DNA of 64,000 bases. Origin: Aquila chrysaetos chrysaetos (Eukaryota; Chordata; Aves; Accipitriformes; Accipitridae). The stretch lies in NCBI RefSeq assembly GCF_900496995.4, contig NC_044009.1, forward strand, positions 35,611,505 to 35,675,504, given 5' to 3'. The notes below the pieces were generated by a model, which did not search any database, was not told the DNA's origin, and saw nothing but the letters and a program-made list of their open reading frames with translations. This document shows, piece by piece, positions 34,801 to 61,600 of this stretch (its first letter is position 1; the number at the start of each line of letters is the position of its first letter). The position numbers and the translations under genes are program-made.

Positions 34801-35500
34801 TTTCATGAGCTTTTGTAATTCTTCCAGCTCCGATAACACTAGAGCTCAGCCACCTCCCTGTGCTGGTGCCCACAGGCATATCCCCATGCTGGCCGGGAGG
34901 GCAGGATTATGCCTCCATCCACTCATTTACCCTACTGCCTAGATGCAGCCCATCCCCTGGCCCCTGCTCTGCTAGGACGGGATATGCTTTGCTCCCTTCC
35001 AAAGCCCTCCAGGCAGGGATCTACCTTCCCTCCCTCCGCAAGCCCTCCAGAGCCTGGCTCTCCCCCAGAGCCCACGGGAAGGGTAAGGAGCCAGGCTTCC
35101 CGGTTGGGCTGGAGCAAGTCTGCGGGTCACAGCCTGCCTCTGCTGGGGCTGATCCAGGCTGGGCAAGTCCCAGGGCTGGGCTCCCCAACCCACCCTTTCC
35201 CTGTGCCTCTCAGCTTGGCTTCACAGCACAAGCCCTGCCAGAGCACCCCCAGCCCAGCCCAGCGCACCCCTGCTCTGCACAGGCTCTGCCCCAGCCCCAC
35301 AAACCCCACATCAAACCAGGCAGCCTTACAGCCTGCAAAAACCAGCCCCTGGCAGCTTTCCCCACCCCTGATCCCCGGTCACTGGGGGCTAGGATCCCCT
35401 TGTCAGCACGCCAGCAGTGCCCCAGGCTGCGGTTGCCGGCACAGGGGCCGTGCCCAGCCCTCCCTGCCCCCCCCGGGATGTCCTGCCACTGGGCACTCAC

Positions 35501-36154
35501 TGTCTGGAAGTCGCTGCCGTTGCACTCCTCATCACCGAACATACAGTGGACAAGCATCTCGCCCAGGTCCAGCTGGTGGCCCGCGCGCCCATAAAACTCC
35601 TCCAGGTCGAAGGGTCGGCTCTTCTCCTCCTCGCTCATGGCCAGCGTCCCCAGCAGAGCCTCCAATCTGCTCTTCTCTGGGCTCTCCGGCACCAGGGGCT
35701 GGCCAGCCCCATCCAGGAGACCCAGCATCTCCCCTGCCCAATACAGGTCATGGCCAGAGAGCTGCGAGAAGCGGGCAGGGTTGAGGTTGCAGAGTGTGAC
35801 AGCGGGGAAGGTCTTGTTGCGCGCCGTCTCCTCCTCCAGCTGGGTGCTGTGGGGGTACTGGAAGTAGAAGCCCACGCACTTGGCATAGGCGTGGATGAGG
35901 AGGGCCAGCGAGCCCAGGAAGGCCAGCAACCACAGCAGGTTTCGGGCAGTGTAGCGTCGGTGCCGGAAGATGTGCTGGATGCCATGGAGGGTGGAGCGGC
36001 CGGCAAACTCCTCCAGGCTGCACGGGCGCCGCTGCGGGGCCGGAGCATCGCATATTGGGTGCTCGTCGGGGCAGCCCCCCGCAGGAAGGGATGCCAAGGG
36101 CTGGGGCGGACCCCAGGGGCATGGGGGGGTCCTCCGGTCTTCCTCCAGCCACAT
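35501..36154 (-). CDS. ASIC4: Acid-sensing ion channel, first coding exon (ASIC4 by position)
   Basis: Start codon at 36154, preceded in frame by a TAG 30 bases upstream. The exon ends at 35501 with ACA followed by donor GTGAGT, giving 218 codons in phase 0. ASICs are trimeric proton-gated sodium channels of the DEG/ENaC family in neuronal plasma membrane. Seen: the conserved STLHG at residues 54-58 with the His-Gly gating pair, a first membrane helix at about 73-91, the post-TM1 signature FPAVTLCNLN at 116-125, and DLYWAGEMLGLLD then FYGRAGHQL, which form the palm and finger start. All ASIC1-4 genes break their coding sequence near this point. Neighbour order (SPEG, GMPPA, then this) identifies ASIC4. 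The protein, however, resembles the ASIC1a/ASIC2a N-terminal type more than the mammalian ASIC4 start. Downstream exons are not in the window. Family call is firm, orthology less so. Confidence 0.85.
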
Positions 36155-41500: not shown

Positions 41501-43159
41501 CCCTGGATCTGGGGCATGCCTCTCCCAGCAGAGTGCCCATCCCCGGGCACCCTGTGGGCTGGTGCTGCCGCAGATCCGCCTGTGGGGTCCTGTCTGTCCA
41601 GGGAGACTGATTTCCTCCAGCTCTGCTCCTGCCCTCTTATCTCTCCTCCCCGGGCTGCACGCCTCGCTCCACAGCCCTGGCGAGCGGGAGCGATAGACCC
41701 CATCCTGCCCGGGCTGAGCACCAAGTCTGGTGCTGGGCATACAGGGCAGCTGGGCCCGATGCAGGCAGGCAGGCAGCTGCGGACAGCACCACCCCAGCGG
41801 GGCCCCAAGGGTTAAGTTGTCATGTATTCAGGGCCACGCGCTGGCCAGGAATTACACTTTTATCGGCATGCGGTGCTGCCGCCGCTTGAATTGGGACTGG
41901 GAACTCTATTTCCGAGCTCACCCAAATTATTCTCAAAGAGATAAAGCGCGGTGCAGAGCAGCGCCGGCGCTTCATTAACATTCCCCAGCCCATTCAGCTT
42001 TAAACGAAGATTGCCTGCCTCGGAAAATGATAAAATTGAACATGTGAAGCAGGGCATTATGTTCCATCAGCCGATATTATTTCCCACGCAGGGGCCGAGC
42101 GGAGACACAAACAGCTATTTATGCAGCGCCTGGCCAAGCCAGGGTGGCTTGGGAGGGGGGGAGCAGACGGGGGGGGGGGCACAGGGTGGGGTGGCGAGTG
42201 CCCCCCTCCCATCCCCGGGCATGAGAGGGGCTGCCTGCACGCTGCCATGGCCACTCTGCCCTACTGGGGGCTCCCAGGCTTGTGCCCAGGGTGCATGGCG
42301 GGTCTGGGGACCACAGACCTGCTCCATGCATTGGGTGAGGGAAGGTCCTCAGGGGTGCGTGGGGTCCCCCGGGCAGCACTTCATGCCATGCCCTGCAAGG
42401 CTGGGGCATCTCCGTCTGCTGCCCTGCCCTGCGGGGATGTGTGTCCCTTGCTAGGGCTGAGCAAGTGGGGGACTGGCTCCATGTGCAGAATGGGGTCCCA
42501 CCTCCTGGGGCTGGGTGCTGGGCCGGCAGGTGCTGGGGAGCACCCGCAGCCAGGGAGCGCATGTCTCCCCAGAGACAGGCAGTGGAGGGCTGAGCAGGGA
42601 GGCCCCCAGGGCTGCAATCGGATTTTGCTTGGCCGTGCCGAGCCTATTGATCCAGCAGTAATTAAAGTCGCTCCAAAACCTGACTCATATTCAACCTTGG
42701 GAGGAAGGAGCTTCTCTGAGAAACACCCTCGGCTCCCCGTGTGCTGGCACAGCGTAGAGCTCAGCCTGCCGGGTTGCTGCCAGGCCATCCCAGCTCCCTG
42801 CCAGGCTCTGTCCCCAAGGGGACCCTGCCTTGGGACTGCCTGGTGCCCAGGGCAGCAGCACCCCATCAGCCCTGATGAGGTTCAGCCCTTGGGGTGGGGT
42901 CCGTGCCACCTGGATCCTATAGCCCGGGATGAACGCAGGCTATTTTCTCACCAAGTGCCTCAGACACATCCCTGGGATGTGGGGGTGCTCTCCCGTGCCC
43001 CTTGCTGTCACTTGGCATGGGGAAAGGAGCCTGTTGAATCTGCAGCCACCCCCGAGAGGCATCGGGGTGCTGGGGGGACCTGCTGCTGCATGCCCATGGG
43101 GTACAAAACCACTTCTCGAGGTCAGAGGCAGCCGGGGAGGTGTGAAGGCATGCGAGGGG

Positions 43160-43203
43160 CCTGCGAGCGTGTGTGCGTGTGTGCGTGTGTGTGTGTGTGT
43201 GCA
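43160..43203. repeat. (GT)n microsatellite
   Basis: GTGTGTGCGTGTGTGCGTGT followed by an uninterrupted GT run. Alternating purine-pyrimidine, potential Z-DNA, about 1 kb upstream of the RACGAP1-like start. Confidence 0.85.
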
Positions 43204-43269
43204 CGGGCTTGCACGCCCAGCCCTGCCGCCAGCCCCACTGCTATTCCCGGTATTCGCAGCAGGTCGGGA

Positions 43270-44330
43270 CAGGCACCGAGGAGGGGGAGCTGCCATTCAC
43301 CGGGGCCCCCCGCAACCCCGCCCGGAGCCCCCGCCAGAACGCAGGGCCACCAGGACCTGGCGGCTGCGGCAGGGAGGGGGCCCGGGGCTGGGGGCTGCTC
43401 CGGGGAGCCCCTGGACGCGGGACCCCGGGGGGCACAGCACCCTCGCAGCGCCGGGCAGCGGCTGGGCTTTGAGGCGGGGAGGTGGCTCCATCTGCAGGAC
43501 ACGGCCCCGGCCGGGAGCCCCGGTGCTGGGGGGTCCCCACCGCCCCCGCCCGCCGGTTTGCATGCGGGGCACAGCGGCGGGGGACAGCGGACAAGGACAC
43601 CGGCCCCTCCGGCTCCCACCCGCGCCGCTCCCGGGAAGCGGGACTGGGGGAAGCGGTGCCGGGAGCCAGCCCCCCTCCCGCACCCCACCCTACACCCCCC
43701 CAGCGCACCCCACGCCCGGTGCTCCCGCCCGACGCCCCTGCACCCCCAGAGCGCCCCGCACCCGCTGCGCCTGCACCCCTCAGGTGCTCTCGTCAGGTAC
43801 GCCCGGTGCCCGGGCACCCACCCTCCCTCAAAGGCGACCCCCACCCGGCACCCTCGTCCTGCCCAGGGCTCTCGCCCCGCACCCCGGGCCACCCCACGCC
43901 CAAGGCTCCCGGGAGGGCTCCCCCGAGCCGGCAGCCGTCGGGGCGGCGGGTCGGGGCCCCGGTGGCGGCGGGAGGCGGAGGCGGAGCCGGGACGGGCTCC
44001 ACCCCGGCCCCCGGCCCACATAGGCCGGCCGGGAGGGCCCCTCGCCCCCGGAGCCTGCGCCGTCCCGGGGGCGTACGGCGGATCCCGGCGGCCGGAGGAG
44101 AGCGCGGGGCAGGAGCTCCGGGGGCTGGGGAGCGAATCCCCGGGCGGGCTGGGAAGGGGGGGTCGTGCTGCCTGGCTGCGGGGGGGGGGGGGGTGTCTCA
44201 CCCCGTCCTAGGGCGGCGGGATGCTGCGGCAGCGCTGCGGGCGGCTCCTGGCCCGGCTGGAGCGGGCGCTGCAGCTGCTGGAGCTCGGCGGTAGCGTGGA
44301 GGAAGGTGGGTGCGCGCAGCCCCTCGGCCT
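43270..44330. promoter_or_regulatory. CpG island promoter of the RACGAP1-like gene
   Basis: Dense CpG and GC with few stop codons on any strand, ending over the first coding exon at 44221. A G(14) run lies at about 44179-44192, just upstream of the start codon. No TATA box is seen near the start. This is the usual promoter class for broadly expressed cell-cycle genes. The transcription start is not determinable from sequence. Confidence 0.6.
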
Positions 44331-47300
44331 GGGGCACCCAGGGACCCCCGGCTCTGCGGCCAGCGGGGGCTGGGGACCGGCCCCCATCCCGGCTGGCCAC
44401 CCGCTTGTGTTGCCCCCAGACTACATCCAGATTGCTCAGTGCTTCGAAGCGACGCGCCAGAGATGCTGCCGCCTGGAGCAGGATGGACGGTGGGCCCGCG
44501 AGCAGCTGGCTCGTGTGGAGGCCGAGCGGGCAGCGCTGGAGGTGAAGCTCAAGCACGCCCGCAACCAGGTGGAGGTGGAGATGAAGAAGCGGCACCGGGC
44601 AGAGGCTGAGCTGGAGAAGCAGGTCTGGGAGCTGGCCGTAGGGGTACCCTGCGTGGGGCTGGCTTTGGGGACCTCAGCCAGCTCACTGCCACCTCATTTC
44701 GCTCGCAGGAGCGCAAACTTCAGCTGGTCTTCGAGTCCCTGATGCGGGAGCCATGGGGCAGCGGGGTGCTGAGCCGGGAGCAGTGCTCTGTCCTCAGGGC
44801 CCTGGCTGGCCACCGCCTCGGGACAGCCCTGGCATCGGGCAGGAGGTGAGCAGGGCTGGTGGTCCTCGCCCCAGCCCCTCGGGCAGCCCTGGGCTTGGCT
44901 GTGCCCCTCTCCCCCTCACCTCTGCTGGGCTCGAGGGGCTAGCTGGGCAGGGGGGTGCTTGGGCTCTGCAGAGGCATCACCCATGGGCTCGCAGGAGTAG
45001 CTGTATGAGTAAGTGCTGGCTGGGGGGGGGGGTTGCCCCAGCTGGACTGACACCCAGCTTGCTCCACAGGTCGTCTGCAGTGGACGAGTCATGCCAGTCC
45101 CTCCTGTCCCACTCGGACATCAGCTACGACCGCACCGAGGATGATGTGGTAAGGAGCAACCCGATGCAAGTCCCCAGGTTCAGCTTCTCCCCAGCAGTGA
45201 GGGCGTAGTTTTGTCCCGCTCCTGCAGTGGGGCAGCCCCTTTGCATGGCCATGGTTAGGGGCAGGCTGCCATTGGAGCTGGATCCTGGGGGTGTATCTGG
45301 CCCCGTGCAGCCCTGCCAGCCCTCAGCTTCCCCGCTGCCTTTCAGGATGTTGATATGACCGTGGTGCGGACCCTGAAACGCAAAGCCCAGGAGAGGCAGG
45401 TACGAGGGAAATGCTGGGATGTGGCAGCCCGTGGGGCCTAGTGTGGAGGTGGGGTCTGCGCCTCTGCATGGGTGAGGATCCCCCGGCTCTGCTCTGCACT
45501 TTGCCCCTGGGACCCTCTACCCATACAGGTCAGCGGCCTGGGCTGGGGTGCTGGCCCTGGCCCATGCAGGGTTAGTGCACCCAGATACTTCTCCATCCCA
45601 GCACAGGAGGCTGCAAGGAGCCTGGCAGGGGGTTTAATTTATGGATGCTGGGCTAGGAGTGCTGTCTCTCAGCAAACCTCCTGCGATCAATAGAAACTCC
45701 ATTACCCTCCACTGTGGCCCAGCCGGACTCTTCAATAATTCATCCCCACGTGCGGGCATCCCACACCCCGCTCTGCTCACACCTCTGCATTGCAGGCCTG
45801 GCCTGGCTTCCCCCAGCCCCTGGGCTGGCTCCAACCCAGGTGGGGGGCCTGGGTCCCCGTGATGCCTGGTGTAGGGCAGGCAATGCTGTGGGGCAGGGTG
45901 AGACTGAGACCTTCTGTGGGGCTGAGACCACTTGGCTCGGGTGCTCTGGGGCGGGGAGCAGACTCAGGGAGGGGGTCCCTGCCTACCCTTCACCCCATCT
46001 GCTCTGTCCCCAGCGCGTGTCCCTGGCCCCTCAGATCGGCCCCGTGGTGGTGGCGAAGCGGCACCGTTCTTCTGTGGCACCCCACCACACCGTGAGTAGG
46101 GACCCCAGTGCGCCCTGGGTGGGGATGGGGTGTGTGGGCTGCCCCAGTGCCAGACGGCAATGCCGCAACCTTCAGTCCTGTGGGTGCTGTGGGGTCTGGG
46201 GGTGCTCAGCTGTCCTCTCTGGGTGCCTGTGCCCTGCAACCTGTATCCCCCTGTACCCATGGTGATGGCATCCCTGGCTGTGCAGGACAGCAGGGCCAGA
46301 GAGCAGGCACAGCAGAGCTCATGGGGAGATGCTGGAGCACTGTGCGGCTGCAGCCAGGCATGTTCTCACTGCCCCCCACCTCAGCAGGCGAGTGTCCCCT
46401 CCGTGCCCCCTCCTGCAGAGGTTCCAGGCCCTGCTGGCAGCCTCCTGCCTGCTGTTCTGGTGCCGCGACGCCGCTCTCGCCAGGGTCATCGTGTCTCCAC
46501 GCGTGCAGGTCACGGGAAGGGCTAGGGAGGGGACTCATGGGTGGTGTGGGACCAGCTTCAGGGTGCTTCCATTACAGGGGAGGGAGGGGATCTGCTGGGG
46601 GATGCTTGTCTCTACCATGGGAGTACTGGGGTCCTCGAGACATGCCAGATGCCACTGTCCCAGGGAAGCTGGGGTGCTGCAGGGGCTCCCTGGCAGGTGG
46701 GAAGCCTCCCCACATCCCAGCTGGGAGCTGGGGTGGTTTGTCTTTTGGGGCCCCCTCCACTGCCTCCTCTCTCTGCAGAGCTGACCACAGTGTGGGGCAC
46801 CAGTGAGGATCCAGGCTGCCGTGCTCTGGGGCAGGAGAGCCATACCGAGGGCAGCTCCGTGGGGCAGCCAGCGCCAGATGCCTTCCCCTCGCCTCCACAG
46901 GGCTTCCCACCACTCCAGCACCAGTTCACCTCCAAAACGGTGTGTGTCTCAGCCTCTCTCCCTCCTCTTGGCTGCTATGGAGAAAGGAGCTGGGTAGGGG
47001 GACCAGGTCTGGGGAGGGGGGCAAAGCTCTCCGCCATCCTCCCCACCCCAGCTCTGCACGCACAAGAGATGGATGGAGGTGGTGGGGGCTGGTTTGGGAG
47101 GGATGAAGGAGTGGTACTGGGTATCTGCAAGAAGTGGGGGCCCTGATCCTGCTCCCCTCTCTCCAGGTGATCCGCCCTGAGCCGTGCAGCGTCTGTGGCT
47201 CCCGCATCCGCTTCGGGAAGGCTGCCGTCAAGTGCCGCCAGTGCCAGCTGCTGCTGCACCCCAAGTGCCGGGAGCAGTGCCCCAGCCTCTGCACGCCCCG

Positions 47301-48851
47301 GCCTCACCGCCACGCCTGGCCCCGTGAGGTGAGGGGGGCATGGTAGTGCTCGGGGGCTGCTCTGTGTCCCTGTGGGGCTGCTGGGCTGCTGGCCCTGGGA
47401 CGCTGGGGCTCTGTCTGCCCCGGCCACAGGGCTGGGTGGCAGGTACAGAGCGGGAGTCGGCATTGTCCTCCCCAGGGCGTGCTGGCTGACTTCGCCCCCC
47501 CCACGCCGCCCCTGGTGCCCGCGCTGGTGGTGCAGTGTGTGACCGAGGTGGAGACGCGAGGTTTGACAGAGGTAGGGGCCGGGGCGGTGGAGGCAGTGAT
47601 GCCATGGTCCCCACGGGGCTGAGCCCTTCTCCCTGTGCCCCAGACAGGGCTGTATCGGGTGCCGGGTGCGGAGCAGCTGGTGCGGGAGTGGAAGCGGAGG
47701 CTGCTGCGGGCTGGAGGTGCGCTGCCTGCCCTCAGCAGCGTGGCTGACATCCATGTGGTGTGTGGGGTGCTCAAGGATTTTCTGCGGGGGCTCAAGGAAC
47801 CACTGGTCACCTTCAGCCTCCACCCTGCCTTTCTGCAGGCTGCTGGTGAGTGGGGGGGTCCCAAGCTGGGAAGGGAAGGGGCTGCTTCTCCCCTAACACT
47901 GCTCCACGGTGCCACTACAGACATCCCAGACGATGCCGCCTGCAGCACAGCCCTGTGCCACGTGGTGAGCAAGCTGCCCCCAGCCAACAGGGACACCCTG
48001 GCCTTCCTCATGCTGCATCTGCTCAGGTGAGGGGCTCATCCTGGCAGGGGCTCTCTTGGGCCTGTCCCCATCTCCTGGCTCTCTGCCCCTCATCCAGGCT
48101 CCATGCCCCACAGTGGGGAACCCGGGCTGAGGATGAAAGGCCCCTTGGCCAGGCAGTGTGCTCACACTGTCTGTCCCTCCTCGCAGGGTGTCGCGCAGCC
48201 CCGACTGCAAGATGGACGTGCTCAACCTGTCCCGTGTGTTTGGTCCGACACTGGTGGGACACAGCTCGGCCAACCCCACGCCGCTCGCCATCATGGAGGA
48301 CACACCGCGGCAGTCCAAGGTGAGGGCATCCCTGGGCCGTGGGGTGTACCCTGGGTGCTGCCAGCATCCCCATACTCCATCCCTCCCTGCCCAGGTGGTG
48401 GCTCGGCTCCTCTCGCTGCCACCTGACTTCTGGAGAGGCTTCGTGGGGACAGAGCAGGAGAACCTGGTGCCAACACCAGCCCCAGGAGGTGAACGTGGTG
48501 AGGCATGGGAGCCCTGGCCCCTCCCTGCCCTTGCCCTGTGGCTGCTGAAGGGTGCCTTTGGCTGGGCTGGGGTACAATAGGTGTCCCCCTCTCTGTCCTG
48601 CAGAGCCGTTCTTCCATCCCATCGCCTCCCCGGAGCCCAAGCCGGGCCAGCTGAGCCCAGCTGGCACCTGCTGCCTCCCCAGCACCCTGCGGAGCTGCGT
48701 GGGCACAGCCACCCGGCCCCCGTGAGTGCTGCCGCGGGTGGGTGGGGGGCCCGAGGGAGCTCGCTTTGCACCCCTGACTCATCTCTCCCCACGCAGGCAG
48801 GGGCCGGCCCCGAGGAAGGTGGTGGGCCGGTTCTTCCCTTCTCCCTTGTAG
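44221..48851 (+). CDS. RACGAP1-like Rho GTPase-activating protein, complete, 16 exons
   Basis: Exons 44221-44305, 44420-44622, 44709-44845, 45070-45148, 45346-45399, 46014-46091, 46286-46508, 46779-46939, 47167-47328, 47476-47571, 47644-47845, 47921-48026, 48187-48319, 48395-48488, 48604-48721, 48797-48851; all phases join, about 661 residues (human RACGAP1 is 632). Seen in order: an N-terminal coiled coil with VKLKHARNQVEVEMKKR; the acidic DES...SDISYDRTEDD segment matching the PLK1/ECT2 docking region; an atypical C1 zinc finger (about 334-382, all His/Cys ligands present); a RhoGAP domain (about 396-590) with arginine finger in GLYRVPG and motifs NRDTLAFLM and VFGPTLV; and a C-terminus ending GRFFPSPL, like the RACGAP1 tail. 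RACGAP1 is the CYK-4 subunit of centralspindlin in cytokinesis. Exon 7 is unconserved and its limits are uncertain. Divergence indicates a paralogue and not RACGAP1 itself. Confidence 0.92.
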
Positions 48852-49053: not shown

Positions 49054-49059
49054 ATTAAA
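49054..49059 (+). terminator. Polyadenylation signal (ATTAAA) of the RACGAP1-like gene
   Basis: ATTAAA about 200 bases after the stop codon, followed by a T/G-rich stretch (GGCTGTGGCTGCTGTCTGTC at 49080). It gives a short 3' untranslated region. Confidence 0.65.
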
Positions 49060-51061: not shown

Positions 51062-54000
51062 TCACAGGATAATCTGGTTCTTGTAGCTGCGGCTCAGCTC
51101 TTTGTGAGGAAGGACGATGGAGTTGAGAATAACGACCTCAGCAGGGATGGTGACACTGCAGCCTGCAAGGAGAGTGCGAGTGGGTTAGTAGGAGGGGAGA
51201 GACTCTGCGCCACTGCGCAGGGCCAGGGCATCTGGGTGCGGGTAGGATGTACCCAGGATTGTAATGGATGGCGTGAGGCGCCCGTCCCGGAAGAGGGTCT
51301 CGCTGTCAATCTTGGCATAGGGATCATTGGGGTTGGGGTCACTGGGTGTTCCTTCAACCCGGGCCCAGCGCCCGATGGTGCTGTCCCAGCCCACGATAGT
51401 ATTGAGGACACAGGTATGGTCCTAGGGTGAAGAAGAGGGGGGTGAAGGGTGCTGCTGCCTCCCTGGAAGGGGTGGGGGTTGACACCCACACTCGCAGGCA
51501 AACCCTACTTACGTGGAGTGAGGCGCCGTGCAGGACAATGGACTCTCGCACTCGCACACCAGCTCCCACCGTCACCCCCTCCCCAATGGAGACGTTGGGG
51601 CCCAGCTGTGAGGACAGAGGGAGGTGATGGGGTTGAGGACAACGGCACCCTCAGCACCCCCGAGCATCGCCCTGCCACGGGGTCCCCCAGGCCTGCACTC
51701 ACCACTGCAGTGCTGTCGATGGAGGCTGTTGGGTGGATGTACACATTCCCTGCAACACAAGGCAGCTGCATTAGGGGAGGCAGCTCACAGAAGCACCCAC
51801 CTCTCAGATCAGGGGAGGTCCTGGGGCAGCCCTCAAGGCAGTGGGGTGCATCAGAGGGGTACCTCGGATGATAGGGCCTCCAGCCTTGTTCTGGGCCAGC
51901 CTCTCTGGGTGGCTTTTGCTGTACTGGTTCAGGTAAAGGCGACTGGCATAGATAGCAGAGCTGGGGGAGGAAAAGCAAATGATTGTTATTATCTCTCCAG
52001 CACTACCAGGGCAGAGGAGGCTCTGAATTCAGCGCACCCCACCCACCCCCAGGGCCCTGCCTGGGCGCCCTCCTCTCCCATCTCTGGTACGGACTGCTTG
52101 ATGCGCCTGCTGCACCAGCTCTAGCTCTAGACCTTACCCTGCTGATTTGATCTGGCTCCAGAAGCCATCAGTTTTGTAGACATAGAGTTTGCCACTCCCA
52201 GCCAGCGCCGTGAAAACGTCCTGCTCTAGCCGGATCACTTCAGCACGCTGCCAGCCGTTGGAGCTCTCCTCTCTGCAAGCGAGAGGCCCGTTAGACACCT
52301 GCCTCAGCCAGGGACCCCAAGAGCTACCTCCCCCAAATCTGGGGGCTACGGTGATCCTAGACTCCTACCTAAACATGGATTTCTCCCCAAAGGTGGGGAC
52401 AGCCCCAGCTGTCAGGCTAGGCCTGCCCAGCCCCACTGAGCCCCAGAGGGAGGGGGCTCTGCCAGCTGAAATAAGCTCTGAGCCAGAAGTTGATGGTGCA
52501 AGAGCCCTGCCCAGTCCAGATGGGTGTATGAGTGACAGATCCTGGCCCTGTTCCAGAGCTCTGCCCAGCTGGATTTTTGCTTGGGTGGTGGCAGAGATGT
52601 CAGGTGACAGGCTGACTAGTGCAAAGAGCCGGAGCAGGGAGCGGAGCATTCCCAGGCTTGCTCAGCCCCTTGTCTGGAGCTGAATGAGGATGGGGTGGGA
52701 GGAGAGGAAGGGAGAGGGGGAGTCTCAAGCTGGCCAGGAGACGAGCAGAGGAAAGAGCAGCCTTGCAAAGCAGCCTAGAGCAGGGAGGAAAGCACGCATT
52801 ACCACTAGGGACGATCCAGCCTGGAGAGCAGCCAGTGCACACACAGAGGGAGACTTACCCAAGGTAAGGACAGCTGGTGCAGGACCAGGAAACAAGTAAG
52901 TGATGGCAGAGGAAGAGAGAAGATAGAGAAAGAATGGAGGATGAGCGTGCCGCTGCAGCCCTGGGAAGCAGTGGGGTGGGAAGGACGCGGGGCAGAGAGA
53001 GGCACTCACAGCACTAGCTCCTGCTGGTTCCTCTGGAAGACCTCACCGATGTGTTGGAATATGGCAGGCGTGAACAGGTAGATGCCACAGTTAATGATCT
53101 CACTGACAAATGTGCTGGGCTTCTCCACGTAGTGCTGGACCTGGAGGCAAAAGAAAATATGTGAGTCCCGGGATGCAGCCCCTGCACCTGGCATCATGCC
53201 TGCTGTGGCACGCTGGGAACATGCGCCCACACAGGCAGCGCAGCACCCACTGCCCACACTGTGCCCGGCTCCCCAAGGCCCTCCAGTACCTCCTGCGTGT
53301 CTGTGTTTGCCACGATACAGCCATAATTCAGCGCCTGCGTCCTGTTGGCCTGCGAAGCAAGGACGTGTTAGCAATGGTGGAGCAGTGGGCATGCGAATGC
53401 AGAGCAGATGAAACCCAGAGCTCACACCCAGGGACTCATCCACCGCAGGAGCCGCTGGCTTCTAGACAAGCCCACGGCAGAGCACTGCTGTTCCTCTGCT
53501 CCCCAGCACTGCCACTCACTGTGGTACCCAGAATGACAAAGCTGTGCGCGTCCCCGTGCTGCTGCCGGAACTCCAGCATCTCCTGCAAGGGGAACTCTGA
53601 GCACACGTCCGCGTTGAGGACAAAGAAGGCCTCAGCACCACCTGACAGGATCTGGTCTCGGAAGTGATAGATGCCACCACCCGTGCCCAGCGCTGCGTAC
53701 TCCTGGAGATACCTGCGAGCCAAGCAGGGAAAAGCGAGGGCTTAGGGAAGCGGGTGTCTGTTAGCACCAACCAGCAGCAGGGCAGAGAGATGGGCTGGCA
53801 GGGGCTGGAGACATTATCCTGCCGTGCAGCAGTGGGGCTCACGTGGACGTTGGCACAGGGTAAGGAGGCTGCGGCAGCTTGGAGCTGTGCTGGAGAGGCA
53901 TCTTTGGAGCAGGAACCAGCCAGGGCAGGGCCCAGGGCAAGGGAAATTTGGCAAGACTGATGCGGGAGGCCAGCTGTGCCCATCTGTGGTGGGACAGTGC

Positions 54001-54538
54001 CCACCTGCCCAACGCCCGGGTGCTGGCTGGGGGCTGCCACCCCGGGGGAGGCGGGTGAGGGGCTGAGCCAGCCTGTGCCACCATGGAGGGGGTGGGAGGT
54101 CTCCTGCCCACCTGATGGGGATCTTGAACTCCTGCTGCGCCGACACCAGGAAGCGGCTGAGGGCCTCGTGGGGCTGATAGAAGCCCATCAGCAGGATCTC
54201 CTTCATGCCGGGCACCTTGAGGGGGGAGAGGGGGCAGAGTGGGGAGGGCGGCCGTGGGGAGGGCGGCCCTGGCCCCCCCCAGCCCCGCCGCCCCCCCCCC
54301 CCCGAGCCACCCCAGGCCCCCCGTACCTTGGCGCAGGCCTCGATGTGGTGCTGCACCATGGGCACCCCGGCCACGGGGAAGAGCGGCTTGGGCACCTCGA
54401 AGGACAGCGGCCGGAACCGGGTCCCTGCGGAGCAGAGGGAGGGGGTCGGCGGGGCCCGGCGCCGGCGGGACGCCCCGCGGGCCCGGCGCACTTACCCTTC
54501 TGCGGGCCCCCGATGAGGATTACCGCCTTCAGCGGCAT
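51062..54538 (-). CDS. GMPPA: GDP-mannose pyrophosphorylase A, complete, 12 exons
   Basis: Exons (5' to 3') 54538-54496, 54424-54327, 54215-54112, 53712-53520, 53349-53290, 53140-53010, 52272-52138, 51960-51863, 51749-51703, 51605-51513, 51421-51253, 51162-51062; phases join to 423 residues plus TGA (human 420). GMPPA is the cytosolic regulatory partner of GMPPB: it binds GDP-mannose and feeds back on its synthesis for glycosylation. Seen: the nucleotidyltransferase start [58 protein letters not shown], then HYVEKPSTF and NCGIYLF. A C-terminal left-handed beta-helix of hexapeptide repeats starts near GNVYIHPTA, and the protein ends SYKNQIIL. The start matches human apart from one extra residue (MPLKAV versus MLKAV). 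It sits about 1 kb downstream of SPEG on the same strand, the standard vertebrate order. Nothing is broken. Confidence 0.97.
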
Positions 54539-56721: not shown

Positions 56722-58682
56722 CTACTGCATCCCCGGCGGCTGGCTGCCCTGGTAGGAGCGGAGTAAGACCTTGTGCTTGGTGACGGCCTCGCCACGGCGC
56801 CGCTGGTGCTCCACCAGGAACTCCTTGAGGCGGTTGGTGGTGAAGGTCAGGGTCTGGCGGCGCAGCTTCATCAGGTAGGCGTCCTGGAGCCAGGCGTTGG
56901 CAAAGCAGTCCTTCACCGTGGGGCGGCTCCTGGGGCAGGGGCAGCGCCGCGTCAGGGACCGTAGGGTGCCTGCCGCTGCTGCACCTCCCAAACCTGGCCA
57001 CCACCCCTCCCCTGCAAGACCCAGGGGGGTCCCAGACCTCTCCAAGAACAGGGATGGATCCCAGGGCCCTGAGCTCAGGAGATCCCAGCCCTCTCCAGGA
57101 GCAGGGATGGGCCCTGGGGTCCCACTGATGATGTCTGGAGGGGCCCCGTGGGGCAGGCAGCTGCCTGCCTGGCCCGGTCGCAGGCGCAGTCTGGGGCCAT
57201 GTGTCCTCCCTGGCTGGGCTGGGCACTTACCAGGGGTGGACAGCGAGGACCTTGCGGATGAAGAGGGCAGCACTCTGCGAGACATTGGGGTACAGCTTGA
57301 AGGCATCAAAGCGCCCTGCCAGGATGCGGTTCTCTGTCTCGACGGGGTCCAGTTCGAAGAACGGCGACCGCCCACTGAGCCTGCAAGGGTGGAGGGGGTG
57401 GCACAGGCTGGGGTGCAGCGGTGGGAGGGCACCCAGCACCCCCTACCCGCCCATCCCTGGTTTGGGACAGCCACAGCTGCCAGGGTGTCTCGATCCTCGT
57501 GTCCAGCTGGGAAGGGTCTGCAGGGATACAGCATCCCCCAGCCCACCACCAGCCTGGTGTCCCCCATGGCACCGAGCCCTCGGTGGGGCTGACTACACCT
57601 CAGGGTGCTGTTCCACCCGGCCCCTTCTCTTACATGATGTAGGTGAGGACGCCAACACCCCAGACATCTGCTGCGGAGCCCACCGGGTCCCCCTTCACCA
57701 CCTCTGGTGCTGTGGGCAGGGAAGCAGGTCTGTCATACGCACCGGGGGGCCCAGCCCCAGCACCCACGGCACTCCCAGCACCTCCAGAACCCACAGTATC
57801 CCCAGCACCCACAGCACCCCCACCAGCCACAGAACTGCACCATTGCACCCTCCAGCACCCCTCCCTGACACCCCAATACCCTGACAGACCACAGCACTTC
57901 CAAGGATACCCCAACTGCCCCACAGCACCCAAACTCTCCCACTGAGCCCAGCAACCCTACAGAAACCCTCAGCAGACACCCCCAGCACCCAAAAGACCCG
58001 CCCAGCTTCCCAAAGGACATCTCAAATCCTCCCCATTCCCAAGCCCCCAGCTGCACAGGCACGCATGCACACCTCTGGCACAAGCGTGCCCCAGATCTGC
58101 CCCTGTCCCCGTCCCCATGCCACCACACCCCCAGTGCCCCACGCACACATGTACTCCAGGGTGCCGACACGCCGCCCCAGCTGCCGCAGCACGAGGGGGT
58201 TGTAGGTCTGGGCACTGCCGAAATCGATGATCTTGAGGGCGTTCACGCCTGAGATGACGACGTTGTCCGGCTTGATGTCGAGGTGCACGATGCGGCGGCT
58301 GTGCAGGTACTCAAGGCCCTGCAGGAGCTGCAGCACGTAGCTCACCACGTCGTCCTCCGAGTAGCGAAACCTGGGGGCAAGTGGCATCAGTGGGCGGCCC
58401 CGTGCCGGCAGCTGTCTCCGGCGGCCCTGCGCCTGCCCGTACCTGTCCACAATGCTGTAGAGGATCTCTTTGCCGGCGCAGTTTTCGCAGATGAGCACCA
58501 GGTAGCGGGGGGTGATGTACGCCTCGTGCAGGGCCATGATGCGCTCATGGTGCAGCGCCTTGAGGATCTCGTACTCCTGCAGCACGCTCTGCTTCCGCTC
58601 CGCCTCGTAGGGCACGATCTTGGCCATGAAGTGCTTCCCCGTGGCGTTCTCCTTGCACAGCCGGATCACCCCAAAACGGCCC
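56722..58682 (-). other. SPEG: SPEG kinase domain 2 and C-terminus (five exons)
   Basis: Glycine loop RGRFGVI, ATP-binding lysine in [11 protein letters not shown], helix C region [14 protein letters not shown], catalytic loop HLDIKPDN (HLD in place of HRD, usual for MLCK relatives), DFG in [13 protein letters not shown], then TLEYM. The APE motif reads SPE if the donor after ATGT at 58147 is used. Then [20 protein letters not shown], and the C-tail [17 protein letters not shown] ending PPGMQ. All residues needed for catalysis appear present. Confidence 0.93.
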
Positions 58683-61600
58683 CTGCGGCACAGGGCGGCG
58701 CTCAGCATCCCCAGTGTGGGGTGCTGGGGGGGGACGACACCCCCGGCAGAGCATCCCGTCCCACTGCTACTCACCTCGCCTTCTCATCCAGGAAGGTGTA
58801 TGGCTTCTGGGGGACGCCCTGCCTCAGCGCCGTGCTGTCTTTTGCCCCCGGGACCCCACTCTCAGCTGGTGGCTCCTTGGAGGACGGGGTGGGGTGGGAC
58901 GACTCCTGTGCGAGGGGCGATGCGGGGGGCATGGAGACGAAGGAGGTGACCATGTAGGGGGGCATCTTCCGCGTGGGCGCGGCGTTGTGGGTGGGAGACA
59001 GCGTGGGGGCTGAGCTGGGGGTGGTTGACACTGGGGAAGTGGGGGAGAACTTGGAAGGAGATGGAGCCTGGGGTGGGGGGGACGTGTCCGTGGGGGGCGC
59101 GGGGGAGCCTTGGGTGGGAGTGTCTGTGTGGGGCGAGGTGACAGTCCGAGGTGGGGTGAACATCAGCTCGGGGGGCACGCAAACTGTGATGTTGGGTGGG
59201 AGTTCGGGGTCTGGCCGCGGCCCCTCCTCGCACGGTGCAGGGGGCTGGAGGACCCCCGGGGGGACGTCCGCCTGCGCTGCCCCGTCTGCCTTCTGCACCA
59301 CTCCCTTGTGCTTGTGGAGCGGCGGTGTGGGGGGGGCCCCCGTGGCCAGCGGCTCCAGCTGCCCCACGGGCGTCTGGGTTGACCGGCTGGAAGCCACCTT
59401 CTCGGGGAGAGGGACAGCGACAGCGATGTCCTTGGCTGGGGCAGCTCGGGCATCTGTGGGGAGCAAAGGGAGGTATGAGCCAGGTGGGGGTAAGCCAGGA
59501 GTGGGGTGCAAGTGGTGCCCTGTTCCCCAAAGCCCTGGGGAGAAGACCCCCAGGACTCAAGGACCCCCAGAGCACCCCAGAGGCCTCAGCCCCACAGCTG
59601 CCCCACGCCCGCGGGACAGGGCTTGCTCACCCGCTGCCTCGAGGTGCACCTTCCCCGAGGGGTTGCTGTAGGGCCCCTGCCCGGCCTTGTTGACACAGGC
59701 CACCCGAAACTTGGCGGCGCTCCCGGGGGGCAGCTCCGTCACGTTGAAGTAGCAGTCGGCGATGCCAGTGCTGACGATCTTCCACTCGTGCTCCCCTGCC
59801 AGCACCGGAGCAAGGTGAGGCGAGAGCAGACCTGGGGCAGCCCCCTGTCCCCCACCCCTGACCCGGGACCCCACCAAGCCCCAGGGGACAGCAAGGACAT
59901 TGGGCACTTTTGTCCTGGATTGGTGTTCCCGTGTGAGCCCATCTTTCCGGCTGCGGCCCCCGGGGGGATGGGAGGCAGCCCCACGTACCCTCCAGCCTGC
60001 GCTCCAGTGTGTAGGTGCAGGGGGCTTTGCTCTCCGCGGGCTTCCACAGCACCAGCACCGTGTTCTTGTACTTCTGGGGGATCTCTGGGGTGCCCGGCCG
60101 CCCGGGGAGCCCTGCGAGGGACAGGCAGCGTGGGCTGGGTGACCAGTCAGGGACAGGGCAGAGCTGCTGCGGCGTGAGGGCAGCGCAACACGTGGGCTCA
60201 GAGATGCTGGAAGTGCCCATGCAAAACTAGCCTGTCCCCCCTCAAAAGTCCCAGTCTCTTGTAGATGTGGAGAGCGGAGCTCAAATAACCTGCTCCGACC
60301 GGTCCCCAGCCCCGGGCTCTGTGCCTGGCACGTGCTCTCTCCCCGTGGGGCAGCACCTCTGTCCCCCGAGGTCCCCCTCCCGCCTCCTTACGTGCCACAG
60401 CCAGTGTGCAGGAGCTGATGGCCGTGCCCAGGGTGTTGGCGGCTGCACATTCATACAGCCCCGCGTCCTTCCTGGAGACCTTGGTGATCGTGAGCATCTG
60501 CCGGCCGTCCTTGCAGGAGATGACGTTCAGTGCGCTGTCTGGCTGCAGGGACCTCTTGTCTGCAGGGGGGAGCAGAGGAGAGGGATGCTACAGTGTTCCC
60601 CCGGCGCCCACTCACCGAGGCAGCGCGGGCAGCCCCCCACCTTTCATCCAGAGGATCCTGGGGGTCGGGCTGCCGGCAGGCAGGCAGCAGAGGGTCAGCG
60701 CCTCGCCCTCCAGCAGCACCTGGTCCTTCAGCTTGATGTGGAAAACAGGGGGGAAATCTGGAAAGCAGAGGTGGGGTCAGGCTGGGGCAGTGACACACAG
60801 CCGCCATCCCATCCTGGGGGCTGCACCTACCCGACTCACTGGGTGCATGTGGCCGGCCGGTGGCGGGTCCCTCCTCCCACAGCAGGCTGGAGGGGATGCT
60901 GGGCTGCGAGGCCATCTTCTCCTTCTTGCCCCGCGAGAGCCCCCAGCGCTCCCAGCGGGACCGCTTCTGGCTCTCACCCCCACCTGCGGGCACCCAAGGT
61001 GACTGAGAGCAGGGCCAAGCCGGGATGGCCATGCCTGCCATGCCCAGGGTGTTTGGGCCACGGGGTGCCGGTGGGACCCCCCCTCGTCGCTCACCTTTGG
61101 TGGAGGCAGAGGAGCGGGTGCTGCCCTCCGAGCGCAGGGACTCAGAGGAGGGCGCGGGTGCCGGGGGGGGCCCCGGCTGCAGGCTCTCCCCTTCAGAGCT
61201 GGCACGGCGGAGCTCCCCGGGCCCCTCGCCCTCCGGCCGCTCGTCCGACAGGCTGCGCAGCCGCGCAGAGACCCGCTCCACCGTGGCACTGATCTTCCTC
61301 CGCACGGCCACCACGGGCGACTCGCTCTCCCCGCCGCCCCCCGGCTCCGACTTGAGGCTCTCCGAGTCCCTCCGCTCCTTGGAGCCACCCAGGGCCAGGC
61401 TCCAGGAGAAGCGGCGCCTGCTGGATGGGGTCTCGCTGCCCCCATCCTCCCCCCTGTTCTTCTTCCTCTCGGCAGGCGGGGTCCGCTTGAGGAGCACGGA
61501 CATCCTCCGGAGGAAGCCCCGGTCCTTCTCCACCTCGTGCAGGTCCTGCACTGACTTGGACTTGGCTGCCAGCCCGGTGGCACGGTCCCTGCGCAGCTCC

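What the first reader, a model, noticed from the sequence alone, without database searches (positions are those of the whole stretch)
44221..48851. A complete second RACGAP1-type gene between GMPPA and ASIC4
A full-length 16-exon gene with coiled coil, PLK1/ECT2-docking-like acidic segment, C1 finger, RhoGAP arginine finger and the conserved C-terminal FF-SP tail. As far as I know no such gene lies between GMPPA and ASIC4 in mammals. It is head-to-head with an ASIC gene, as RACGAP1 is next to ASIC1 on human 12q13; DES/SPEG here and PRPH near RACGAP1/ASIC1 there add to the parallel. The simplest reading is an ohnologue from the vertebrate genome duplications, kept in sauropsids and lost in mammals: possibly a second CYK-4 with its own role.
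Basis: partly seen in the sequence, partly recalled or inferred. Interest (0 to 1): 0.85.

Follow-up and report, generated by a model that had tools for sequence, protein, structure and literature searches.

The report
Ancient second RACGAP1 cell-division gene
This genome (probably a bird's) carries an intact second copy of RACGAP1, a gene usually treated as single-copy that helps cut dividing cells in two; the copy is older than the split from mammals, probably dates from the early vertebrate genome duplications, and has changed far more than the standard copy.

Summary
In detail: window 44221-48851 (+) holds a complete 16-exon, 630-codon RACGAP1/CYK-4-type gene without internal stop, between GMPPA (-) and the first exon of an ASIC gene (-), ASIC4 by position. 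The same genome also has a canonical RACGAP1 at C15:29318782-29325214; all 15 introns match in place and phase. Canonical is 82% identical to human RACGAP1 (human letters recalled, GAP domain checked against PDB). The window gene is about 44% identical to both and sides with neither: 23 sites shared only with human, 17 only with canonical, p = 0.43. So the duplication predates the human/sauropsid split. Both genes stand head-to-head with an ASIC gene, and both blocks carry hedgehog and WNT genes: most likely a 2R ohnologue. Chicken very likely has both (papers). Catalytic residues, C1 zinc ligands and the ECT2-docking serine are kept; the Ser387 position is Pro. Best guess: a divergent centralspindlin GAP subunit, perhaps outside ordinary cell-cycle control. 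Expression, function and loss in mammals were not tested.

The parts
44221..44305 (+). coding exon 1 (ATG 44221), start of coiled-coil region
   Evidence: canonical exon 1 has the same length, 85 nt
44420..44622 (+). coding exon 2, coiled-coil region (203 nt in both genes)
44709..44845 (+). coding exon 3 (137 nt in both genes)
45070..45148 (+). coding exon 4; holds Ser160, equivalent of human S157, the PLK1/ECT2 docking serine
   Evidence: role of S157 from PMC2680336 passages
45346..45399 (+). coding exon 5, acidic then basic segment (54 nt in both genes)
46014..46091 (+). coding exon 6 (78 nt in both genes)
46388..46508 (+). coding exon 7 (alternative acceptor 3 nt upstream)
46779..46939 (+). 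coding exon 8; first C1 ligand His300 near its end (46919-46921)
   Evidence: base position worked out from the exon table
47167..47328 (+). coding exon 9, C1 zinc finger, remaining seven ligands
47476..47571 (+). coding exon 10, start of RhoGAP domain (96 nt in both genes)
47644..47845 (+). coding exon 11; arginine finger R397 = CGG 47656-47658; two residues on, Pro399 stands where human has Ser387
47921..48026 (+). coding exon 12, RhoGAP (106 nt in both genes)
48187..48319 (+). coding exon 13, RhoGAP, Asn508 (133 nt in both genes)
48395..48497 (+). coding exon 14, 33 nt shorter than canonical
48604..48721 (+). coding exon 15
48797..48851 (+). coding exon 16, FF-SP tail and stop TAG
49054..49059 (+). 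poly(A) signal ATTAAA
43200..44599 (.). CpG-island-like promoter region (GC 67-82%, CpG o/e 0.56-0.78 per 200-bp block); no CCAAT or CHR match within 43000-44420, the part scanned
35498..36031 (-). first coding exon of the ASIC gene (ASIC4 by position), head-to-head with this gene; not part of it
51188..54520 (-). GMPPA, at least this span, convergent with this gene; not part of it
   Evidence: motifs; PDB match of one exon

Best explanation
The locus is an intact, fast-evolving second RACGAP1 (CYK-4/MgcRacGAP) gene that arose together with ASIC4 when an ancestral ASIC-RACGAP1 block was duplicated, most likely in the early vertebrate genome duplications (2R). SHOWN by sequence: complete ORF and splice sites, RACGAP1 domain order, conserved catalytic and zinc-binding residues, a separate canonical RACGAP1 in the genome, matching intron architecture, paralogous synteny, and divergence before the human/sauropsid split. 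INFERRED mechanism: the protein dimerises through its N-terminal coiled coil and binds the kinesin KIF23/MKLP1 to make a variant centralspindlin. PLK1 phosphorylation of Ser160 (human S157) can recruit the RhoGEF ECT2. The C1 finger holds it on membrane, and the GAP domain switches off a Rac/Rho-family GTPase locally. Pro at the Ser387 position would remove any phospho-switching there. The lack of CCAAT/CHR matches hints at expression not tied to the cell cycle, for instance in a restricted tissue such as germ line or nervous tissue.
For: Gene model and domains. Canonical RACGAP1 on C15: 16 exons, 631 aa, 15 of 15 introns at the same place and phase, 8 of 16 exons of the same length. Three-way comparison over 595 columns: human-canonical 82.4%, human-window 44.5%, canonical-window 43.5%; 23 sites human=window only versus 17 canonical=window only, p = 0.43; in the GAP domain 9 versus 7. 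Head-to-head ASIC on C6 and C15. Hedgehog genes on three contigs only, two of them these blocks (C6:35.89 Mb, C15:28.76 Mb); WNT genes at C6:36.03 and 36.06 Mb and C15:28.81 Mb. 3 of 3 GAP residues and 8 of 8 C1 ligands kept, although only 242 of 490 human=canonical sites are. Chicken papers: 'RACGAP1' ENSGALT00000018359 on chr7 with ASIC4 ENSGALT00000018356 (PMC4835825) and RACGAP1 on chr33 (PMC10286233). One KIF23 locus found.
Against: The window branch is about 1.25 substitutions per site, against about 0.1 for human and for canonical, so constraint looks much weaker. GC3 is 0.80 against 0.51 and Gly/Ala/Arg/Pro 35% against 23%, so part of the change may be composition drift. The chicken gene carries a splice-donor variant among two resequenced lines. 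No expression or biochemical data. The promoter contrast is weak: in an 80% GC region only 0.24 CCAAT and 0.01 CHR matches are expected anyway, and the canonical stretch, chosen after seeing its motifs, has 3 CCAAT (1.12 expected, P 0.10) and 2 CHR (0.33 expected, P 0.046). WNT genes occur on 13 contigs, so their pairing alone says little. Only two of four ASIC-bearing chromosomes have a RACGAP1.
Confidence: 0.82

Rival explanations
1. The gene is intact by inheritance but under so little constraint that it is on its way to being a pseudogene; it makes little or no working protein.
For: Long branch 1.25, GC-driven composition, a splice-donor variant in the chicken gene.
Against: No stop or frameshift in 630 codons after a divergence older than the human/sauropsid split; 15 of 15 splice-site pairs intact; 11 of 11 catalytic and zinc residues kept where only 49% of comparable sites are. 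My reading of the chicken table (3 nonsynonymous, 5 synonymous SNVs) gives pN/pS about 0.28, but P is only 0.07.
Confidence: 0.12
2. A local segmental duplication of an ASIC-RACGAP1 block, older than amniotes but not part of the genome duplications.
For: Only two of the four ASIC-bearing chromosomes carry a RACGAP1.
Against: Hedgehog genes, found on only three contigs, lie within 0.6 Mb of both RACGAP1 genes (C6, C15) and also on C3, an ASIC-bearing chromosome; WNT genes lie within 0.6 Mb in both blocks too. This resembles the HOX paralogon (name recalled).
Confidence: 0.06
3. A recent sauropsid or bird duplicate of RACGAP1 that diverged quickly.
For: A high rate of change could mimic age.
Against: No excess of sites shared with canonical over human (17 versus 23); the canonical branch is not shorter than the human one (0.116 versus 0.098); the ASIC gene beside it would need the same event.
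Confidence: 0.02
4. It is the only RACGAP1 of the genome, displaced or mis-assembled.
For: A chicken paper called the chr7 gene simply RACGAP1.
Against: Canonical gene with complete ORF on C15.
Confidence: 0.01

Closest known systems
RACGAP1 / MgcRacGAP / CYK-4 (canonical; human 12q13, location recalled)
   Same: Domain order, 16-exon structure with 15 of 15 intron positions, GAP Arg/Lys/Asn, C1 ligands, ECT2-docking serine, FF-SP tail, head-to-head ASIC neighbour
   Different: About 44% identity; Pro at the Ser387 position; Asp and Thr at the S164 and S170 positions; shorter last exons (14 and 16); GC-rich and Gly/Ala/Arg/Pro-rich; no CCAAT/CHR match upstream; sits between GMPPA and ASIC4
Chicken chr7 'RACGAP1' ENSGALT00000018359 (listed in PMC4835825)
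   Same: On chr7 with SPEG, OBSL1, ASIC4 and DES; transcript number three away from ASIC4; very likely the orthologue
Chimaerins (CHN1/CHN2)
   Same: C1 followed by RhoGAP
   Different: Much weaker match (E 5.3e-30 versus 3.8e-69) and no SH2 domain found in the window protein; that chimaerins have SH2 is recalled

Membership tests
RACGAP1/CYK-4 family | C1 finger with eight zinc ligands directly before a RhoGAP domain | tested here: met
   Pfam; the ligand spacing pattern occurs once in each of the two proteins searched, window and recalled human
RACGAP1/CYK-4 family | Catalytic Arg, Lys and Asn of the RhoGAP fold (their role recalled) | tested here: met
   R397, K436, N508; GAP activity itself not testable
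RACGAP1/CYK-4 family | N-terminal coiled coil that binds MKLP1/KIF23 | tested here: inconclusive
   46% identity to recalled human over 106 columns, VKLKHARNQV kept; coiled coil and binding were not tested as such
RACGAP1/CYK-4 family | PLK1-phosphorylated ECT2 docking site (human S157) | tested here: met
   SDIS[F/Y]D[K/R]T conserved, Ser160; role of S157 from PMC2680336 passages; phosphorylation not testable
RACGAP1/CYK-4 family | Exon-intron structure of RACGAP1 | tested here: met
   15 of 15 introns same place and phase as the canonical gene of the same genome; exon edges of that gene were set by hand at GT-AG sites near tblastn matches, and the frame closes without a stop
2R ohnologue of RACGAP1 | Divergence older than the human/sauropsid split | tested here: met
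   23 versus 17 shared sites, p 0.43; branch lengths. Human letters outside the GAP domain are recalled
2R ohnologue of RACGAP1 | Paralogous synteny with the canonical block | tested here: met
   ASIC head-to-head, hedgehog and WNT on C6 and C15
2R ohnologue of RACGAP1 | Presence in other vertebrate classes | not testable with these tools
   No vertebrate genome collection on hand; chicken seen only through papers
Chimaerin family | SH2 domain before C1-RhoGAP (recalled) | tested here: not met
   Only C1_1 and RhoGAP found

The most novel reading that the evidence does not exclude
Birds, and perhaps other non-mammals, run two centralspindlins on a single KIF23: the usual mitotic one and a second built on this divergent CYK-4. 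The second lacks the cell-cycle promoter and the Ser387 switch and serves a specialised structure, such as stable germ-cell bridges or neuronal microtubules, a function that mammals lost with the gene.
Probability: 0.3. Interest if true: 0.75.

Novelty: new member of a known kind. Interest (0 to 1): 0.58.

Why it matters
RACGAP1 is, as far as I recall, treated as single-copy, and functional work assumes one CYK-4 per vertebrate. A retained, fast-changing sister gene with intact catalytic, zinc-binding and ECT2-docking residues is a natural experiment on which parts of CYK-4 are needed. It also warns that chicken data labelled RACGAP1 may refer to either of two genes (chr7 or chr33).

Tried and rejected
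An exon 7 acceptor chosen at first broke the frame; the acceptor at 46388 restored it. Searches for relatives in plasmids and, with the GAP part, in viral contigs found none, as expected for a vertebrate gene. The first 298 residues alone have no significant PDB relative (best E 0.12). Rfam found nothing in the window at its gathering scores. A tree of ASIC first exons was first built with four loci on the wrong strand (discarded) and redone; it is poorly resolved and carries no weight. No aquaporin motif was found in the 24.8 kb after canonical RACGAP1. Paper searches that could have shown a second RACGAP1: RACGAP1/ohnolog/birds (163 papers, 20 listed, none of the 20 holding RACGAP1), RACGAP1 with paralog and chicken (7 listed), 'Rac GTPase-activating protein 1-like', RACGAP1/chicken/avian (41,694 papers, 40 listed), RACGAP1 with whole-genome duplication and synteny, RACGAP1L, RACGAP1B and paralog names, RACGAP1/gene loss/sauropsid (164 papers, 12 listed). 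Others: MgcRacGAP with DT40, RACGAP1 with zebrafish and maternal-effect (none), ASIC1/ASIC4 with genome duplication (none). In the rows listed and the passages read I saw no description of a second RACGAP1 or an ohnologue; most hits of the broad searches were not listed and the library is partial, so this is no proof. Passages only were seen of PMC5737441, PMC6500517, PMC6678745, PMC7166044, PMC10286233, PMC9639855, PMC7152653, PMC4245216, PMC12462953 and PMC2680336; of PMC4835825 passages and section 9 part 1; PMC12954441 was searched for five terms (RACGAP, ASIC1 and others) without a match.

Full report
OBSERVATION. I rebuilt it from the DNA: 16 coding exons from ATG 44221 to TAG 48851 on the + strand, 15 of 15 introns GT-AG, phases that fit, and 630 codons without a stop. 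The only ambiguity noticed is a 3-nt choice of acceptor at exon 7. A CpG-island-like region precedes the gene and a poly(A) signal follows at 49054. Pfam sees a C1 finger (E 7.9e-10) and a RhoGAP domain (E 2.8e-37). Among solved structures the best matches are human RACGAP1 GAP domains (E 3.8e-69), then chimaerins at 5.3e-30.

NEIGHBOURS. GMPPA lies on the other strand downstream (motifs; PDB 7d72 E 4.4e-28). The first exon of an ASIC gene lies on the other strand upstream at 35498-36031. I call it ASIC4 by position, and because chicken has ASIC4 on chr7 in the same block. A kinase exon at 58025-58783 (-) fits SPEG by position. Desmin motifs were not found in the window.

IS THERE ANOTHER RACGAP1? 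Yes. The window lies in a 1.23-Gb genome at C6:35611505-35675504. Searching that genome with the window protein gave 19 exon matches: 14 at home and 5 on C15 near 29.32 Mb. The stretch was fetched, and a gene was modelled there at C15:29318782-29325214 with 16 exons, 631 aa and a complete frame; its exon edges were set by hand at GT-AG sites near tblastn matches to human. All 15 introns fall at the same place and phase as in the window gene, and 8 of 16 exons have exactly the same length. No third locus appeared; a repeat search with the canonical protein did not complete.

AGE. In a three-way alignment of 595 gap-free columns, human and canonical are 82.4% identical, human and window 44.5%, canonical and window 43.5%. 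Sites where the window gene agrees with human alone number 23, with canonical alone 17 (p = 0.43); in the GAP domain, where 196 of my recalled human letters are confirmed by PDB, 9 and 7. A duplication in the sauropsid line would give a clear excess for canonical. Branch lengths say the same: human 0.098, canonical 0.116, window 1.25. So the copy is older than the human/sauropsid split. Its branch is 11-13 times longer; part of that is the time before the split, but it must have changed several-fold faster.

ORIGIN. An ASIC gene stands head-to-head with RACGAP1 on both C6 and C15 (13 ASIC-exon matches in all, on C1, C3, C6, C7, C8 and C15, the C1, C7 and one C6 match weak). Hedgehog genes occur on three contigs only, C3, C6 and C15, and those on C6 (35.89 Mb) and C15 (28.76 Mb) lie within 0.6 Mb of the two RACGAP1 genes. 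WNT genes also lie within 0.6 Mb of both (C6:36.03 and 36.06 Mb, C15:28.81 Mb), but WNT matches occur on 13 contigs, so this adds less. On C3 and C8 there are ASIC and WNT genes 1-3 Mb apart and no RACGAP1. This is the pattern of the HOX paralogon (name recalled); the simplest origin is the 2R genome duplications. In print, canonical RACGAP1 lies near FAIM2 and aquaporin genes in coelacanth, two teleosts and human, and RACGAP1 beside AQP6 in king cobra (PMC4245216, passages).

CHICKEN. A 2016 paper lists 'RACGAP1' ENSGALT00000018359 on chromosome 7, three transcript numbers from ASIC4 ENSGALT00000018356, with SPEG, OBSL1 and DES also on chromosome 7 (PMC4835825, section 9 part 1). A 2023 paper puts RACGAP1 on chromosome 33 (PMC10286233, passages). 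The four qPCR primers for chicken RACGAP1 from two papers (PMC7152653, PMC6678745, passages) match the canonical gene of this genome with 2-3 mismatches and the window gene with 7-9, so those assays read the canonical gene. Chicken therefore very likely has both genes; I saw neither full sequence. The table's values for the chr7 gene fit 3 nonsynonymous and 5 synonymous SNVs (my inference), pN/pS about 0.28, P = 0.07; the same paper reports a splice-donor variant in it.

MECHANISM. Kept: the GAP Arg, Lys and Asn; all eight C1 ligands; and Ser160, the equivalent of human S157, whose PLK1 phosphorylation docks ECT2 (PMC2680336, passages). Only 242 of 490 sites shared by human and canonical are kept overall, so 11 of 11 such residues is unlikely by chance (about 4e-4 if sites are independent; I chose the residues from recalled knowledge). 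Changed: human S164 is Asp, S170 is Thr, T260 is Asp, and Ser387, which is Asp in PDB 3wps, is Pro; that Ser387 is an Aurora B site is recalled. The canonical gene has two CCAAT-type boxes and a CHR-like site within about 60 bp of one another in a CpG island upstream of its ATG; the window gene has none in 43000-44420. Controls make this weak: 3 CCAAT against 1.12 expected (P 0.10) and 2 CHR against 0.33 (P 0.046) for the canonical stretch, which was picked after seeing the motifs, and near-zero expectation for the window. One KIF23 locus was found, so both proteins would share one kinesin. I infer a variant centralspindlin subunit, perhaps expressed outside ordinary cell-cycle control. No expression or biochemistry was available.

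VERDICT. The ohnologue reading is well supported. Absence from mammals rests on a recalled human map, and the role is unknown. The gene has been annotated under the name RACGAP1 in chicken; in the rows listed by my paper searches I saw none that describes it as a second gene.

Noticed in passing
L006 (C6:35610779-35611237, just left of the window start); L005 (C15:29288566); L007 (C8:5074610); L008 (C3:78927461): Each of C3, C6, C8 and C15 carries at least two ASIC first-exon-like units (C6 three, C6:35587259 being the third). On C8 they are 411 kb apart, as expected for the alternative first exons of ASIC2 (recalled). An alternative first exon may therefore predate 2R and exist for ASIC4 too; the tree did not resolve it.
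   Followed up: partly
window 1-35213: The motif patterns recognised no further ASIC exon between the ASIC4 first exon and the window's left end, so its first intron may exceed 35 kb; not checked further.
   Followed up: no
L008 (C3:78927461-78927925): The second ASIC-like unit on C3 has an in-frame stop and a very long branch; possibly a decayed exon.
   Followed up: no
window 44221-48851 versus L011-L012: Strong base-composition contrast between the two RACGAP1 genes of one genome: GC3 0.80 versus 0.51, Gly/Ala/Arg/Pro 35% versus 23%.
   Followed up: partly
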